DNA of 24,240 nt from a virus. Under the pieces are notes generated by a model. The model was given only the letters and a program-made list of their open reading frames with translations, did not search any database and was not told where the DNA came from. Shown in pieces: positions 3,627 through 10,938 of the stretch. The stretch lies in IMG/VR virus record IMGVR_UViG_3300044638_002339, positions 1 to 24,240 of that record; one strand, 5' to 3'. Each line of letters begins with the position of its first letter. Position 1 is the stretch's first letter. The position numbers and the translations under genes are program-made.

Positions 3627-3816
3627 TTGATTTCTTCCGTAAATGCCTTTCCAGCACCTCCTCGGCCTCGTCCTCCATCCATCTCGTGGACTGAGTAACG
3701 ACCTCAAGCCAAGTGCCGTCGATTAGAATCTCCCAATCCCATCTGTAGCAATCGTCTTGGTGATTGGGCCAGCACCGGAGCGGATACCCTTTCCAATGTT
3801 GCATTTGGTCATTCAT
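3610..3816 (-). CDS. Small hypothetical protein, Trp-rich
   Basis: 68 residues. The start overlaps the methyltransferase stop as ATGA, and the end overlaps the DnaD-like gene by 17 bases, so it sits in a tightly translationally coupled string. The first half has a Trp/Cys/His pattern (HWKGYPLRCWPNHQDDCYRW), and the second a strand GTWLEVVTQS plus an acidic-to-basic helix. Two cysteines and two histidines could bind metal, but the spacing is not a named zinc finger. Function unknown. Confidence 0.55.
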   Translation of the reverse strand: MNDQMQHWKGYPLRCWPNHQDDCYRWDWEILIDGTWLEVVTQSTRWMEDEAEEVLERHLRKKSNDPIT

Positions 3817-4817
3817 ATAAGCAATCCTTGTTTTGATTTTACATTAAATCGTTTACTGGCTTCAGCTAAGTTAAGTTTTGCTTGTTTAAAATAGCTGTCC
3901 TTTAACTCAATTCCTATTGCCTTTCTTCCCATTGATACTGGGCTAAAAACCTCGCTTCCAACTCCCATAAATGGAGTAAGAATAACCTCATTAGGGTTTG
4001 AATATAATTCAACAAGCCGATCTATAACATCAAGTTGAAGCGGGTGAACGTGTTTTTCATCATCCTCCTCTTTTGAGTCTCTGAATGGCAGTATATTATC
4101 TCCGCGAACGTCATCCCATACACTCGAAGCATATCTCTGCCAAATATAATGATTCAATTTAGTTATTTCGTCCTCCTTGTTAACATTATTCAAGTGCTCC
4201 CAGAGCTGTTCTGCATTCAATTCTGCCTTGTTAGCATTATTCCATGCCCTTAGAATGTTTGGCAAAATAGGTATTTCACCGGCATAATGGTTTATTCCGT
4301 ATGGATGCGTAACTGGAACTTCATTTTCTCCTTTTTTTGTAAAAACAAGAACATAATCAGGCATAGCTGTAAAACATTTTGTGCTGTCCTCTACAATGAA
4401 CTTGTGCATCAATGACTGAACCATTGTCCGCATCCGAACCTTTAATGGCTCTTTCCATATTGTTATCCTGTTTCGATACTCAAATCCATGCTTAATATGA
4501 AGTTTAATTACTTCGTGCGGAAAATCCCAAAGCCTGCAAGTATTATCAAAAACATCCGTAACATGAACTGCATTTATTCTTCCTGGCTTTGTTACTCTTG
4601 ACATTTCAGCGATCAAAAAGTCATACTGATCTAAAAATTGCTCTTTGTTTTCGCAATTTGAAAAGTCTCTCTCTGAGCTTGAATAGTTGTAGAGTCCGGC
4701 AAAAGGCGGACTGTAAACCGATAGATCAACGCTTTCAGAATCTAATTGAGGTAATACATCCATGCAATCTCCGTTATAGATTGCGTAGTTTTCTTTTATT
4801 TCTTGGTCTTTAATCAT
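3813..4817 (-). CDS. DNA methyltransferase, beta-class (N4-C or N6-A)
   Basis: 334 residues. YNGDCMDVL (14-22) is followed by the catalytic motif SPPF (36-39) in the phage-typical context VYSPPFAGLYNYSSSERD. The AdoMet-binding motif I comes late, TPFMGVGSEV (281-290), with the acidic IGIEL (301-305). This catalytic-then-SAM order is the beta class. SPP(Y/F) is commonest in N4-cytosine enzymes, but N6-adenine is also possible; the target base is not decidable here. The central insert, residues 90-250, probably includes target recognition. No partner endonuclease is seen, so it is likely a solitary protective or epigenetic enzyme. It follows the SNF2-type helicase by seven bases with no clear Shine-Dalgarno. 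Both genes are markedly AT-rich relative to their neighbours. Confidence 0.92.
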   Translation of the reverse strand: MIKDQEIKENYAIYNGDCMDVLPQLDSESVDLSVYSPPFAGLYNYSSSERDFSNCENKEQFLDQYDFLIAEMSRVTKPGRINAVHVTDVFDNTCRLWDFPHEVIKLHIKHGFEYRNRITIWKEPLKVRMRTMVQSLMHKFIVEDSTKCFTAMPDYVLVFTKKGENEVPVTHPYGINHYAGEIPILPNILRAWNNANKAELNAEQLWEHLNNVNKEDEITKLNHYIWQRYASSVWDDVRGDNILPFRDSKEEDDEKHVHPLQLDVIDRLVELYSNPNEVILTPFMGVGSEVFSPVSMGRKAIGIELKDSYFKQAKLNLAEASKRFNVKSKQGLLI

Positions 4818-4824
4818 AATATAT

Positions 4825-6243
4825 TTAGAATTTAGGTTTAATTACTTTTTTATCAAACTCCCTTTGAGTTATTGTGAACTGACTGTTTACGTTTTCTGTT
4901 AGGTTTTTATAAAGCTCAATAGCTTTATCTGTTTTCTGTTGAAGAGCCTCTAAGACTCTTGTTTGTCCATCTGATACCACCACATCTATTGTTACGTCTT
5001 TTGTTTGACCGAATCTCCAAAACCGTCTTACGGCCTGATAGTATTGCTCATAGCTGTAGGTAGGGAAAAATACAGAATGATTGCAATGCTGCCAATTTAA
5101 TCCAAAGCTAGTCATCTTTGCTTTAGTTATTATCCGCTTTATTTCGCCGCGAGAAAAAGATAAAAGTATTTCCTCTTTCCGCTCCATTGACTGGCTTCCT
5201 ATTATCTCAACTGCGTCTCGATCCATAGACTTTAAAAGCGAGCTTTCATTGTTGGTATTACACCAGTAAACCGATGTATTTCCTTCCGCTAATTCAACTG
5301 CCTTCTTGCACCTGATCTCTTCAGTCTGTTTTTGTTCATATCTAACCTCGGCAAATGATTTTGCTATTGGCGTAAATATTTGAACTTGACCTGATGTGTC
5401 AATCATGGACTGATTTTTTATGACGTGTTTATTAACAATCAATTCGGGTAACTTATACCTATCATTCGAGAAACCAATATCACTAGGCATTTTTACCATA
5501 ATGCTCCACTGATTTACCCACGCAAAGAAATCCTTTTCAGCGTGAGGTTTTAGGTAGAATTTTTCCCCGATATTTCTATTTGTTGAATCGACTGAGTTTT
5601 GATTATTCTTAAAGAACTTTCCAAGCATATCCATATAACCCAAATACCCTAATGCCTCAGAACTAGTTCCTAGCTCTATAAAATCATTCGGACTCGGTGT
5701 TGCTGTTGATAAGAAACGATATGGAATCTTCTTAATAAAAGAAGTTACTTGACCTTTTATTTTTCCGTCAAAGTTTTTAAGGATACTGCTTTCGTCAAGA
5801 ATTACCGCGACGAAGTCATTTGAATCGAAATAATGCAATCTTTCATAATTGCATATCACTATTTTTTTAGTATATTTCCCATCCTTCGAGTATTCAATAT
5901 CATCAATTCCTAGCTTTTGCGCCTCGATTATAAATTGAAACGCAACAGCAAGTGGGGTTAAAATCAATACATTTTTATTTGTATTATTTATTATATTTTT
6001 TGCGATTGATAGCTGAATTAATGTCTTACCAAGTCCTGTGTCTGCAAAGATAGCTATACGGCCTTTTTTTACTGCCCTCTCAATTATATGTTTTTGAAAA
6101 TCAAATGCAATGTCTGGTATGTAATTTGCATCGAACCCAAATTCACCAATCGAGTGACGTTTGCCCTCTAAGAATCTTAAATAATTATTCATCTTGACCT
6201 GACAGGAATTGTCGGAGTCGTTGGTTATCTTTTCGGAGTTCAT
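4825..6243 (-). CDS. SNF2-type DEAD/DEAH helicase
   Basis: 472 residues. Q-motif-like DFQKHIIERAVKKG (48-61), Walker A ADTGLGKT (67-74), motif Ia LILTPLAVAFQF, Walker B variant LDESS (149-153) in place of DEAH/DExx, motif III STATPSPND (179-187), and in the second RecA domain TKAKMTSFGLNWQ (373-385) and the arginine-finger motif QAVRRFWRFGQ (403-413). This is the SNF2/Swi2 pattern, meaning a duplex-translocating ATPase rather than necessarily a strand-separating helicase. It is directly upstream of the methyltransferase, and such adjacent pairs are familiar in phage genomes; it may help the methyltransferase or strip host proteins. The sequence is strongly AT-rich, and a 59-residue coiled-coil gene overlaps its first 59 bases in another frame. 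Confidence 0.9.
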   Translation of the reverse strand: MNSEKITNDSDNSCQVKMNNYLRFLEGKRHSIGEFGFDANYIPDIAFDFQKHIIERAVKKGRIAIFADTGLGKTLIQLSIAKNIINNTNKNVLILTPLAVAFQFIIEAQKLGIDDIEYSKDGKYTKKIVICNYERLHYFDSNDFVAVILDESSILKNFDGKIKGQVTSFIKKIPYRFLSTATPSPNDFIELGTSSEALGYLGYMDMLGKFFKNNQNSVDSTNRNIGEKFYLKPHAEKDFFAWVNQWSIMVKMPSDIGFSNDRYKLPELIVNKHVIKNQSMIDTSGQVQIFTPIAKSFAEVRYEQKQTEEIRCKKAVELAEGNTSVYWCNTNNESSLLKSMDRDAVEIIGSQSMERKEEILLSFSRGEIKRIITKAKMTSFGLNWQHCNHSVFFPTYSYEQYYQAVRRFWRFGQTKDVTIDVVVSDGQTRVLEALQQKTDKAIELYKNLTENVNSQFTITQREFDKKVIKPKF

Positions 6244-6364
6244 CGTTTTCGTTATTTAAGTATTCAATGCGGTTGTTTAATTGGTTTGCTAGAGCTTCAA
6301 GATCAGCCATCTGTTCTTTAACTCGTCTTACTAGGCTTACTACTTTTGTTATGCCGTCGAACAT
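6185..6364 (-). CDS. 59-residue coiled-coil microprotein
   Basis: An ATG at 6364 opens a 59-codon frame ending in TAA at 6185. The translation begins MFDGITKVVSLVRRVKEQ and continues as a nearly continuous amphipathic helix with leucine/isoleucine and asparagine heptads (LEALANQLNNRIEYLNNE, then LRKDNQRLRQFL), as in a short leucine zipper. An internal ATG at 6310 gives a 41-residue form. It overlaps the preceding small gene's end and the helicase's start in a different frame. The regular heptads argue that it is real. A dimerising adaptor or scaffold role is possible; function unknown. Confidence 0.55.
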   Translation of the reverse strand: MFDGITKVVSLVRRVKEQMADLEALANQLNNRIEYLNNENDELRKDNQRLRQFLSGQDE

Positions 6365-8479: not shown

Positions 8480-9399
8480 TGATTCGCCTTTCTCCACTCG
8501 ATCGCCGTGTTCACAAACTGATCGACGCGAAGTGCAACACGGTGCAGATACTCAGGAGCGCAGTCGCGCCACGTCTGTTCGCTTGTTAATACGCCGCGCC
8601 CGATTAGGAACTGGTTGACCGCTCCTTCATGCTCTGCGAGTCGTCCTGCCCAGCTTTCTGGTGGTGTTGCAGTTGGTGCGACTACGGCTTGCGCCTTTGT
8701 CTCGAACAAATGAGCAACCGATGCCCATTCCAGCGGCAACTCTTCTGCAAGGCCAGATCGCGTCTTCGCGTCGTAGGCTGCCGAGTGCGTGGTTAACAAG
8801 ATGCGCTCCTTGCCGCCGATGCCCTTCCCCTTGCCGGAGTCCGTTGTTGAGACCTTGGTCTTAAAACGCAGGAACCAAAGCTCATCCGCGAACTCTTTGA
8901 GTAGTGGTGAGCTTTGCTTGCTCAACTTCAGTTCATAGCGGTCATATGCCGCGAGTGCATCTGGCGCCTCAAAGCGCACGATCTTGGAGTGCGCGATCAT
9001 CACGACGTTCTTGCCGGCGTCAATTAACTGGTCGATGCTGGACAGCATCCGACTCATGCGCTCCGCTACCATAACCCAGCCCTTGCCGAATCCAAAGTCT
9101 TCGACGCTAGTCTTCTTGGTGCTGGCGAGTAGGTCTTCAACGCACAGGCGTTCTGCCCAATCCGCGCTGTCTACGACGATGGTTTTGTAATCAGTCGCTT
9201 TGGCCTCAGCCAATGCGTCCGTGAGTTGTTTCCAGCTGTTGATCTCGCAGCGGTCAACGTCAAGATGTGACGTTCCTTGCTCGATGTCCAAGAATAGCGG
9301 GTTCGGAAACTTGGCCGCGAATGTTGATTTGCCTACGGATTCGACACCGTAGATGACTACGCGCTGGGCGCGTTGTTGTTTTCCTTTTGTTATTTTCAT
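8476..9399 (-). CDS. Sak4-like RecA-fold ATPase (AAA_24)
   Basis: 307 residues. Walker A GVESVGKST (18-26) lies in the typical VVIYGVESVGKSTFAAKFP opening of AAA_24 phage nucleotide-binding proteins, followed by FLDIEQGTSHLD (36-47), Walker B TIVVDSADW (73-81), and VVMIAHSK, a sensor strand. After residue 215 the sequence is less conserved and ends in a helical tail. Such proteins (Sak4 type) act as small recombinases with a phage SSB in single-strand annealing or strand exchange, consistent with its position between the Cas4-like nuclease and the other recombination genes. The leader before the ATG is CAGAAAATCAAAGCAAT. The start overlaps the upstream gene stop by four bases. Confidence 0.85.
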   Translation of the reverse strand: MKITKGKQQRAQRVVIYGVESVGKSTFAAKFPNPLFLDIEQGTSHLDVDRCEINSWKQLTDALAEAKATDYKTIVVDSADWAERLCVEDLLASTKKTSVEDFGFGKGWVMVAERMSRMLSSIDQLIDAGKNVVMIAHSKIVRFEAPDALAAYDRYELKLSKQSSPLLKEFADELWFLRFKTKVSTTDSGKGKGIGGKERILLTTHSAAYDAKTRSGLAEELPLEWASVAHLFETKAQAVVAPTATPPESWAGRLAEHEGAVNQFLIGRGVLTSEQTWRDCAPEYLHRVALRVDQFVNTAIEWRKANQ

Positions 9400-9890
9400 A
9401 TTGCTTTGATTTTCTGAATTTCGTTGAACAACCCAGCGAACTCAAAGATTTCTGCGAGTTTTGAATATCGCACTTGAAATGCTGTCAGTTCGCTTTTTGC
9501 GTTTTCGATGACCTGTCTAGTCGCTTCCTTGTCATCCATAATATTTGAGACGAGCATAAAGCTCCCTCGCTTTGCTCCGTCGATTGTGCCGTCTTCCTCG
9601 ACGTGTTTGATAGGCCAGAAGGCGCGAACCGTTAGCGTCTTTTGATCCGATGTTGTGATCTCCACTTTGATCCTACGAATGAGATCGTAGGCTTGCGCCT
9701 CCCTCCATTTGATAGCGGCTTCGGTGTCGTCCCACTCAAAGTATTTGTGAAGGCTGCTGAGTGGGTTTGCTGCTTCCGTTAGTAGCGTTCGCGGGTTGAG
9801 TCCTGCCGGACGATTCGCGATTGCCTCCAACTGTTTTTTGATCTCATCGTTTTTGGATTCGATCTCGTTTTCTTGTTTTATCAGTTTCAT
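9396..9890 (-). CDS. Conserved phage protein of recombination cluster
   Basis: 164 residues. After a charged N-terminal helix, the sequence NPLSSLHKYFEWDDTEAAIKW and AYDLIRRIKVEI form a pattern I recall in many phage hypothetical proteins ('LH.yFEWdD..Aa..yR..qAr.lir'), followed by a beta strand region ending near MLVSNIMDD and a long C-terminal helix. No catalytic motif is seen. It is the first gene downstream of the pentamer array; the leader between array and ATG contains TATAAG at about 9922-9927 and an A/C-rich segment ending in AATAGAAA. The end overlaps the ATPase start by four bases. Exact role unknown. Confidence 0.6.
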   Translation of the reverse strand: MKLIKQENEIESKNDEIKKQLEAIANRPAGLNPRTLLTEAANPLSSLHKYFEWDDTEAAIKWREAQAYDLIRRIKVEITTSDQKTLTVRAFWPIKHVEEDGTIDGAKRGSFMLVSNIMDDKEATRQVIENAKSELTAFQVRYSKLAEIFEFAGLFNEIQKIKAI

Positions 9891-9953
9891 TTTCTATTTT
9901 TGTTTGTTGTTTGCGATCCACTTATACCCCGCTCTATCGCTGCGGTTTGTGCT

Positions 9954-10246
9954 TTGCCTGCCTTGCCACGCCTAGCCTCGCCTCGCCAGGCCCCGCCGCG
10001 CCCCGCCAAGCCCTGCCGGGCCTCGCCTGCCGCGCCAAGCCTTGCCTGGCCTGCCGTGCCCCGCCAGACCTTGCCGAACCAAGCCTTGCCTGGCCTGCCG
10101 TGCCTTGCCAAGCCTCGCCGAGCCACGCCATGCCATGCCTCGCCTGCCGTGCCGAGCCGAGCCGTGCCGCGCCATGCCGGGCCTAGCCACGCCTGCCGTG
10201 CCAGACCTCGCCGTGCCAAGCCGTACCCAGCCTAGCCACGCCTGCG
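9954..10246. repeat. GCCNN (GGCNN) variable pentamer array with 49-bp superperiod
   Basis: On the plus strand a GCC core recurs every five bases with two variable bases between cores: 53 five-base units and 7 four-base units (TGCC), 293 bases in all; the very last unit reads TGCG. Four units have ACC for GCC. The two variable bases take 15 of the 16 possible values (CG is missing). The four-base units start at 9959, 10028, 10052, 10096, 10145, 10194 and 10243; the last three intervals are exactly 49 bases (one TGCC plus nine pentamers), and four consecutive blocks start TGCC GTGCC. Blocks 10028 and 10052 both end AAGCC TTGCC TGGCC. The transcript of the gene strand would be a GGCNN repeat RNA. 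No protein-coding role is convincing. Confidence 0.9.
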
Positions 10247-10253
10247 TAGGGTT

Positions 10254-10303
10254 GCAGTCGGATTCCACGGAATCCGCTGCGGGTTGTGTTGTCGCCGTGG
10301 CGA
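10254..10303. repeat. Two hairpins between RAMP-like gene and pentamer array
   Basis: CGGATTCC (10259-10266) and GGAATCCG (10269-10276) are perfect inverted arms with two bases between, extended after a one-base bulge by GCAG (10254-10257) and CTGC (10277-10280). A second, smaller one is TCGCC GT GGCGA (10292-10303). On the gene strand both come after the stop at 10312 and before the array. No U-tract follows, so transcription may continue into the array. Confidence 0.6.
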
Positions 10304-10311
10304 AATGCATA

Positions 10312-10938
10312 TTATTCGTTGGCTAGTGTGAACGTGCCCCAGCCCATGCCTGCCGACATCTTGGAGTCTGGGCGACCTTCGCCGATGCCGACCTGCTGAC
10401 CGACTCGTTGGAGTAGGTTAGCAACGTCCGTAGACGTGAATTGGTCGGAATCGTAGCTGATGTTAATGTCAGCCGACCAAGGCCAGAACTTGGCACGAAC
10501 TCGGATGTCGCAAACGCCGGTTGCGTTTCGAGCGTGCATAATGTGCGGCTCGGCTGATCCGTTAATTTTGATCAACGGTACGGCGTCTACTTTGTCGAAT
10601 CCATCTCCCTCAACAAAGATCGAGAGCTTGGCCAGCGTCATTTTGAAGCCTACCAATCGGCAGGCCGAAATGAGACCGTTGCGAAATGCTCCTGCTGGTA
10701 TTCCGTCCCATCCTTCGTCGCTGACGTGCTTTGCCGCTAGAAAATCTGCGTCGAAGTCGCGTGCTTCCTTGGCTTTCTTTTTGTTCGCTTGGCTTCCGAG
10801 CTTGTGCTTTTCGATCATGGTGTTGATCGCCTTTTCCGAAAATCTCAGTTGCACATATGGTGCTGTGCCTTGGATTTTAAATCGTGCTTTTACGATGTTC
10901 GGTGCTTTGATTGTTACGTTTTCAGTTGTTGGTTTCAT
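10312..10938 (-). CDS. Phage protein with possible RAMP (Cas7-like) fold
   Basis: 208 residues. I have no firm family name. Features reminiscent of RAMP proteins of CRISPR complexes are GIPAGAFRNGLISACR (residues 79-94; compare the 'iPgsslkGalRsa' helix) and a C-terminal glycine-rich segment QVGIGEGRPDSKMSAGMGWG just before the final beta strand, in the place of the RAMP G-rich loop. An N-terminal beta strand FKIQGTAPYVQLRF precedes a lysine-rich helical insert (KLGSQANKKKAKEAR). A role in binding RNA or DNA is therefore plausible but not shown. It sits between the RuvC-like resolvase and the pentamer array in a recombination cluster. The leader ends AAGAAAACATAAAT. No other Cas-type gene is present apart from a Cas4-like nuclease. 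Confidence 0.6.
   Translation of the reverse strand: MKPTTENVTIKAPNIVKARFKIQGTAPYVQLRFSEKAINTMIEKHKLGSQANKKKAKEARDFDADFLAAKHVSDEGWDGIPAGAFRNGLISACRLVGFKMTLAKLSIFVEGDGFDKVDAVPLIKINGSAEPHIMHARNATGVCDIRVRAKFWPWSADINISYDSDQFTSTDVANLLQRVGQQVGIGEGRPDSKMSAGMGWGTFTLANE

What the first reader, a model, noticed from the sequence alone, without database searches (positions are those of the whole stretch)
9954..10246. GGCNN variable pentamer array with a 49-base superperiod
A GCC core recurs with strict five-base spacing for 293 bases while the two bases between take 15 of 16 possible values, so this is neither a microsatellite nor ordinary coding sequence. Seven four-base units punctuate it; the last three blocks are exactly 49 bases, and four consecutive blocks open TGCC GTGCC. 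Two blocks share the ending AAGCC TTGCC TGGCC, showing block duplication followed by divergence of the variable bases but not of the core. That implies selection on core and spacing. On the transcribed strand this is a GGCNN RNA with GG every five bases, able in principle to form stacked two-tier G-quadruplexes or to be bound by a repeating protein. Possible roles include a recombination or packaging signal, a regulatory RNA, a protein filament nucleation site, or a decoy.
Basis: seen in the sequence. Interest (0 to 1): 0.88.

Follow-up and report, generated by a model that had tools for sequence, protein, structure and literature searches.

The report
Phage VIPR guide-RNA array beside Vipr gene
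This odd five-base repeat is a string of small RNA guides, sitting between two phage genes, that very probably steer a CRISPR-like phage protein to the DNA of rival viruses; the system type (VIPR) was first described in a 2026 preprint, so this is a new, compactly built member of it.

Summary
In detail: 59 units, GGY core on the RNA strand, 15 of 16 NN values, six internal 4-base units. It is neither coding sequence nor a microsatellite. The flanking gene 10312-10938(-) is a homologue of Vipr, the RAMP (Cas7-like) protein of VIPR systems. The evidence is a sequence match to PDB 36pp "SUSP1 Vipr" and a predicted fold whose best matches are Csm3/Cas7 proteins. VIPR guide RNAs (vrRNAs) are alternating GGY/NN repeats (preprint PMC13142463). 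Two tests support the gene-array link. Of 46 IMG/VR loci found by Vipr protein, 44 have the array 3' of vipr in the same sense; the other two end at the gene. Of 89 loci found only by DNA pattern, at least 56 encode Vipr, all in the GGC-RNA sense. Cores are 98-99.6% conserved over 926 units while NN turn over between phages with near-identical Vipr. The next gene, 9396-9890(-), is conserved beside vipr in distant systems: the accessory (vap) candidate. The array is a leader hairpin, six guide blocks ending in GGCA, and a tail. I could not identify targets. Verdict: new member of a known kind; function inferred from homology.

The parts
10312..10938 (-). vipr gene, 208 aa (phrog_4652): RAMP-family RNA-guided protein homologous to SUSP1 Vipr
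   Evidence: PDB 36pp phmmer E=4e-4, profile 8e-5; 26% identity over 182 aa to SUSP2 Vipr, E=1e-8; AF2 model matches Csm3/Cas7 at Z about 10
10243..10311 (-). vrRNA leader with two hairpins, ending CCCTACGCA directly before block 1
   Evidence: 95% mean column identity over 10 relatives; three pairs of hairpin 2 changed on both sides, 96% of cells paired
10194..10242 (-). guide block 1 (NN: GT TA TG AC TT AC GA CT AC; then GGCA)
10145..10193 (-). guide block 2 (GT TA CC AT GC AC TC TC AC; GGCA)
10096..10144 (-). guide block 3 (GA AT AT GT TC GA TT AA AC; GGCA)
10052..10095 (-). guide block 4 (CA AA TT TC AA CT GG AC; GGCA); the same block is found in L131 and L134
10028..10051 (-). short block 5 (CA AA TT GC; GGCA), probably a deletion remnant of a block-4 type copy
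   Evidence: comparison with L131, which has two block-4 type copies here
9959..10027 (-). guide block 6 (13 NN: GA CC AG TT GG GC GG CT GA GA TA GT AA; GGCA), next to the tail
9913..9958 (-). conserved 3' tail (AAGCACAAACCGCAGCGATAGAGCGGGGTATAAGTGGATCGC...)
   Evidence: nearly identical after the arrays of near relatives whose guides differ
9396..9890 (-). candidate vap (vipr-accessory protein), 164 aa, phrog_15946
   Evidence: homologues beside vipr in mycobacteriophages, a Rhodoplanes plasmid, prophages and MAGs at 25-52% identity

Best explanation
The array is the guide-RNA (vrRNA) locus of a phage VIPR system (Viral Interference Programmable Repeat), ordered vipr - vrRNA array - vap. It is transcribed from the minus strand, probably with vipr, as one precursor: leader hairpins, six guide blocks, tail. 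By homology to the studied VIPRs, Vipr subunits line up along the RNA, one per GGY, leaving the two variable bases of each unit free to pair with DNA. The target is read as NN-x-NN-x (one base skipped), and bound DNA is transcriptionally silenced, typically in a competing phage or prophage. The 4-base GGCA unit that ends each block most likely marks the boundary between successive guides. Shown here: Vipr homology, predicted RAMP fold, array-gene linkage, core conservation with NN turnover, leader hairpin, conserved neighbour (vap). Inferred: transcription, processing, RNP formation, the 1-base skip rule and silencing in this member, and the identity of its targets.
For: Vipr homology: PDB 36pp, SUSP2 Vipr E=1e-8, RAMP fold. 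Array grammar equals the vrRNA grammar of PMC13142463 (array). Linkage protein to array: 44 of 46 loci, the other two end at the gene. Linkage array to protein: a Vipr profile built without them hits 56 of 89 pattern-only loci, all 56 in the GGC-RNA sense, median gap 76 bases; 69 after iteration, 68 in sense; 0 of 77 sibling loci chosen by a tail gene have either. Mycobacteriophages with a 35% identical Vipr have the array beside it. Cores 98-99.6% over 926 units with variable NN; 63 of 72 array pairs with Vipr at least 98% identical share no block. NN composition fits codon positions 1-2 best, by 47 nats. Conserved vap neighbour.
Against: No target was identified: four decoded blocks scanned in IMG/VR gave no hit extending beyond chance, and 282 guides against held phage loci gave no excess over shuffled guides for any skip length. 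Blocks carry about 7-9 usable NN, at or below the 9-16 repeats of the preprint's vrRNAs. The per-guide codon-phase test was negative. The parent system rests on one preprint.
Confidence: 0.9

Rival explanations
1. A VIPR array, but read as one or a few long overlapping ('staggered') guides that span block boundaries, rather than six separate guides; the 4-base unit is then a register shift inside a guide.
For: The preprint mentions staggered arrays with overlapping vrRNAs; blocks are short and only one leader and one tail are present.
Against: Blocks are the units of sharing and duplication between phages, and their ends are uniform.
Confidence: 0.3
2. A cis-acting DNA or RNA structure (G-quadruplex, recombination or packaging signal) that happens to lie beside vipr.
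For: GG every five bases could form two-tier quadruplexes; the window region holds recombination genes (Sak4-like, exonuclease, RuvC-like).
Against: The array follows vipr, in one orientation, across phages, prophages and plasmids where the recombination genes of the window do not; quadruplexes would not require an invariant Y or rapid NN turnover.
Confidence: 0.03
3. Protein-coding repeat: an ORF runs from a conserved ATG just after the vipr stop through much of the array.
For: The ATG is conserved in near relatives and the ORF stays open for about 88-193 aa.
Against: The array is stop-poor by construction (on this strand only TA in one register gives TAG), 4-base units shift the frame at every block, block lengths are 5n+4 whatever the frame, and cores are conserved in all frames; the ORF has no PHROG match.
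Confidence: 0.03
4. A decoy RNA that titrates the Vipr of competing phages rather than a set of guides.
For: The GGY core alone could sequester Vipr (inference).
Against: A decoy needs no coding-like NN composition, conserved leader and tail, or block turnover, and the array sits beside its own vipr.
Confidence: 0.03

Closest known systems
VIPR of Escherichia phages SUSP1/SUSP2 (PMC13142463; PDB 36pp)
   Same: Homologous Vipr (26% over 182 aa, E=1e-8), phage location, GGY/NN guide RNA in the sense of vipr, accessory gene next door
   Different: Here GGC dominates (GGT in SUSP2), many guide blocks are packed in one array with one leader and one tail and GGCA punctuation, instead of separate ~100-nt vrRNAs each with its own structured tail; the vap candidate is unrelated in sequence to SUSP2 Vap1
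Unannotated VIPR-like loci of cluster F mycobacteriophages (Donkeykong, Brocalys, Mattes, Quico, Saal)
   Same: 35% identical Vipr, 26% identical vap candidate, GGCNN array with 4-base units, all co-directional
   Different: The array lies 5' of vipr, within the lysogeny-control region between antirepressor and excisionase genes
Class 1 CRISPR RAMPs (Csm3/Cas7)
   Same: Predicted RAMP fold (Z about 10) and a protein filament on a guide RNA with periodically unread bases
   Different: No CRISPR repeats or cas adaptation genes found; five-base rather than six-base period; about 10% sequence identity

Membership tests
VIPR | Vipr protein: RAMP homologue with RRM core and G-loop | tested here: met
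   36pp and SUSP2 Vipr sequence matches; Csm3-like predicted fold; conserved Gly-rich C-terminal stretch GIGEGRPDSKxSAG
VIPR | vrRNA of tandem GGY/NN repeats adjoining vipr | tested here: met
VIPR | 9-16 repeats per vrRNA | tested here: inconclusive
   Window blocks hold 4-13 NN before the GGCA unit; in near relatives most hold 7-10; true RNA ends unknown
VIPR | Invariable structured 3' tail | tested here: inconclusive
   One conserved tail after the whole array, not after each block; its folding was not tested for covariation; the leader hairpin was
VIPR | vipr-accessory (vap) gene | tested here: met
   9396-9890 homologues adjoin vipr in distant systems; whether it is one of vap1-6 could not be checked
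VIPR | Vipr-vrRNA complex forms | not testable with these tools
   needs pull-down
VIPR | Non-contiguous DNA targeting with a 1-base skip | tested here: inconclusive
   NN composition fits codon positions 1-2 but no targets were found
CRISPR-Cas class 1 | CRISPR repeat-spacer array with cas genes | tested here: not met
   Repeat unit is 5 bases with a 2-base variable part; no cas adaptation gene among the window proteins scanned against PHROGs, Pfam or PADLOC (a partial weak Cmr6 hit on the helicase, E=0.002, is not evidence of one)

The most novel reading that the evidence does not exclude
A VIPR subtype not among the seven described types: a packed pre-vrRNA in which many short guides share one hairpin leader and one tail and are separated only by a 4-base GGCA unit that breaks the five-base register, so that guides turn over as cassettes between otherwise near-identical phages, a CRISPR-array-like organisation of memory in a phage.
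Probability: 0.25. Interest if true: 0.75.

Novelty: new member of a known kind. Interest (0 to 1): 0.6.

Why it matters
VIPR is a very recent, preprint-only class of RNA-guided DNA recognition thought to predate CRISPR. This window and its relatives give dozens of arrays with near-identical Vipr but different guides, which makes guide acquisition, guide turnover and the 4-base punctuation directly testable. The two-way linkage measured here is an independent check of the preprint's claim that such repeats belong to Vipr, and it shows that a simple DNA pattern finds VIPR loci in viromes and in cultured mycobacteriophages where they are unannotated.

Tried and rejected
Rfam search of the window and of ten array loci for known RNAs, hammerheads included: none in the window, only tRNAs elsewhere. 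Literature search for GGCNN and pentanucleotide repeats: nothing relevant; the lead came from the PDB entry name. Target searches: held loci, sibling phages, four IMG/VR scans, 243 Bradyrhizobium-genus genomes for one guide of a relative: no convincing target. Codon-phase coherence within guides: negative. Vap fold: no PDB match with Foldseek E below 0.5; winged-helix resemblance at Z 4-5 is weak. L5, meant as a target genome for the mycobacteriophage guides, was not in the collection, and those targets were not pursued. The preprint's supplement (type definitions, fig. The window's own Vipr did not bring up 36pp by Foldseek; the fold library ends in April 2026, so this is no evidence either way.

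Full report
OBSERVATION. The array is real. On the + strand it is GCC-NN at five-base spacing from 9956 to about 10243: 59 units, 52 of five bases and six of four, CC invariant, 55 GCC and 4 ACC cores, 15 of 16 NN values. Dinucleotide shuffles of the array itself never give more than 6 consecutive units against 14, or more than 10 GCC pairs at distance five against 44. The identified genes around it are on the minus strand, so the transcript reads GGY-NN.

WHAT IS NEXT TO IT. The 5' neighbour in sense, 10312-10938(-), belongs to phrog_4652, function unknown. Against the PDB its one credible sequence match is 36pp, 'SUSP1 Vipr protein' (phmmer 4e-4; profile 8e-5 with the next hit at 0.05). Directly against SUSP2 Vipr it is 26% identical over 182 aa, E=1e-8. 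The AlphaFold2 model (pLDDT 74) has as best matches the Csm3/Cas7 family of CRISPR RAMPs, Z up to 10.1 (146 residues aligned, rmsd 3.7). The preprint PMC13142463 describes VIPR: a small RAMP, Vipr, and vrRNAs made of alternating GGY and hypervariable NN; the NN pair with DNA with one base skipped; the complex represses transcription; natural targets are competing phages, satellites and prophages.

LINKAGE TESTS. (a) From protein to array: 46 IMG/VR loci were fetched with the window Vipr (50-100% identity). In 44 a GGCNN array lies 3' of the gene in the same sense; the remaining two (L144, L157) end at or just after the gene. (b) From array to protein: 120 stretches were fetched by DNA pattern only. 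Of the 89 with a diverse array, a Vipr profile built without them hits 56, every one in the GGC-RNA sense, none overlapping the array, median gap 76 bases; after iteration 69, 68 in sense. Several of the 20 without a hit have the array at a contig end. 77 sibling-phage loci fetched by a window gene in the tail region have neither array nor Vipr. (c) In the phage database the array's only DNA matches are 24 actinophage records, 23 of Mycobacterium and one of Gordonia; the mycobacteriophages carry a 35%-identical Vipr adjoining the array. (d) Vipr homologues in a Rhodoplanes plasmid, Bradyrhizobium, Roseococcus, Azohydromonas and MAGs mostly have GGY arrays too; one, L217, shows none.

ANATOMY. 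In the near relatives: a 69-base leader with two hairpins; guide blocks of GGCNN; a conserved tail. The leader's second hairpin keeps three pairs through changes on both sides (only five sequences). Complete blocks are 34-59 bases, always 5n+4, mode 44, and end in GGCA (86 of 94) or CGCA (8), preceded by AA, AC or AT in 78 of 94. So the 49-base superperiod is one frequent block length, and GTGCC TGCC is punctuation. The last NN of a block is probably part of this punctuation, not guide (inference).

SELECTION. Over 109 distinct blocks (926 units) positions 1-3 are G 99.6%, G 99.5%, C or T 98.5%, while NN are variable. Guides turn over fast: 63 of 72 array pairs with Vipr proteins at least 98% identical share no block, though leader and tail are nearly constant. 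The window and L131 share blocks and differ by a block duplication and an NN change. NN frequencies fit codon positions 1-2 of coding strands 47 nats better than the next frame, as one-base skipping along codons would give; the per-guide phase test did not add to this.

ACCESSORY GENE. 9396-9890(-) (phrog_15946) has homologues beside vipr in mycobacteriophages, the Rhodoplanes plasmid and several prophages and MAGs, whereas window genes such as Sak4, the exonuclease, the helicases and DnaB were not found near vipr there. It is therefore the vap candidate. Its predicted structure (pLDDT 85) has a weakly winged-helix-like front part and a long helix; PDB matches are not significant, and BFVD gives only two unnamed or uncharacterised viral proteins. 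It shows no similarity to SUSP2 Vap1.

TARGETS. Not found. Decoded blocks 1, 2, 3 and 6 (NNx pattern, 16 bases) hit 4, 3, 59 and 25 IMG/VR stretches, without extension into the further NN of the block beyond chance. 282 guides against about 3.2 Mb of held loci, including 120 sibling loci, gave no excess over shuffled guides for skips 0-3. A candidate for block 3 (a small conserved phage protein in ten contigs, in codon phase) is only a lead.

VERDICT. A VIPR locus: membership rests on two tested features (Vipr, GGY/NN array) plus a conserved accessory gene. Function in this phage is inferred. The packed architecture with GGCA punctuation may correspond to the preprint's 'staggered arrays' or be a further variant; the supplement that would decide was not available. 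The parent discovery is a single group's preprint; the linkage measured here supports it independently.

Noticed in passing
L129:5918-6304 (Mycobacterium phage Donkeykong gene 48): The annotated hypothetical protein 48 lies almost wholly on the GGCNN array (5942-6285) and is very probably a spurious ORF; the cluster F locus sits between antirepressor and excisionase genes, and its array, Vipr and vap are annotated only as hypothetical proteins.
   Followed up: partly
10308-10310 (minus strand): An ATG one base after the vipr stop is invariant in ten relatives although the bases around it vary; it opens an ORF through the leader into the array. Start codon of a leader peptide, or part of the RNA? 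Unexplained.
   Followed up: partly
3751-6250: A DNA methylase and an SNF2-type helicase lie in a stretch of 33-39% GC against about 50% on either side, suggesting recent acquisition.
   Followed up: no
L350, L355, L377, L367, L342, L383, L360, L394, L368, L356: Block 3 decoded with a 1-base skip matches, in codon phase, one ~66-aa protein family (GLxVSPEMIVSEFNI...) in ten contigs with differing wobble bases; possible target family, not significant on present evidence.
   Followed up: partly
L170, L171, L174, L175, L176: The guide TG GT TG AT AA ... is kept in all five phages while most of the other blocks differ, including an unusual GGA core at the third unit; a long-lived target is likely.
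   Followed up: no
L218:1703-1982: A Bacteroidota MAG with a 51%-identical Vipr has a GGT-dominated array like the SUSP phages, so the third core base varies between systems within this Vipr family.
   Followed up: no
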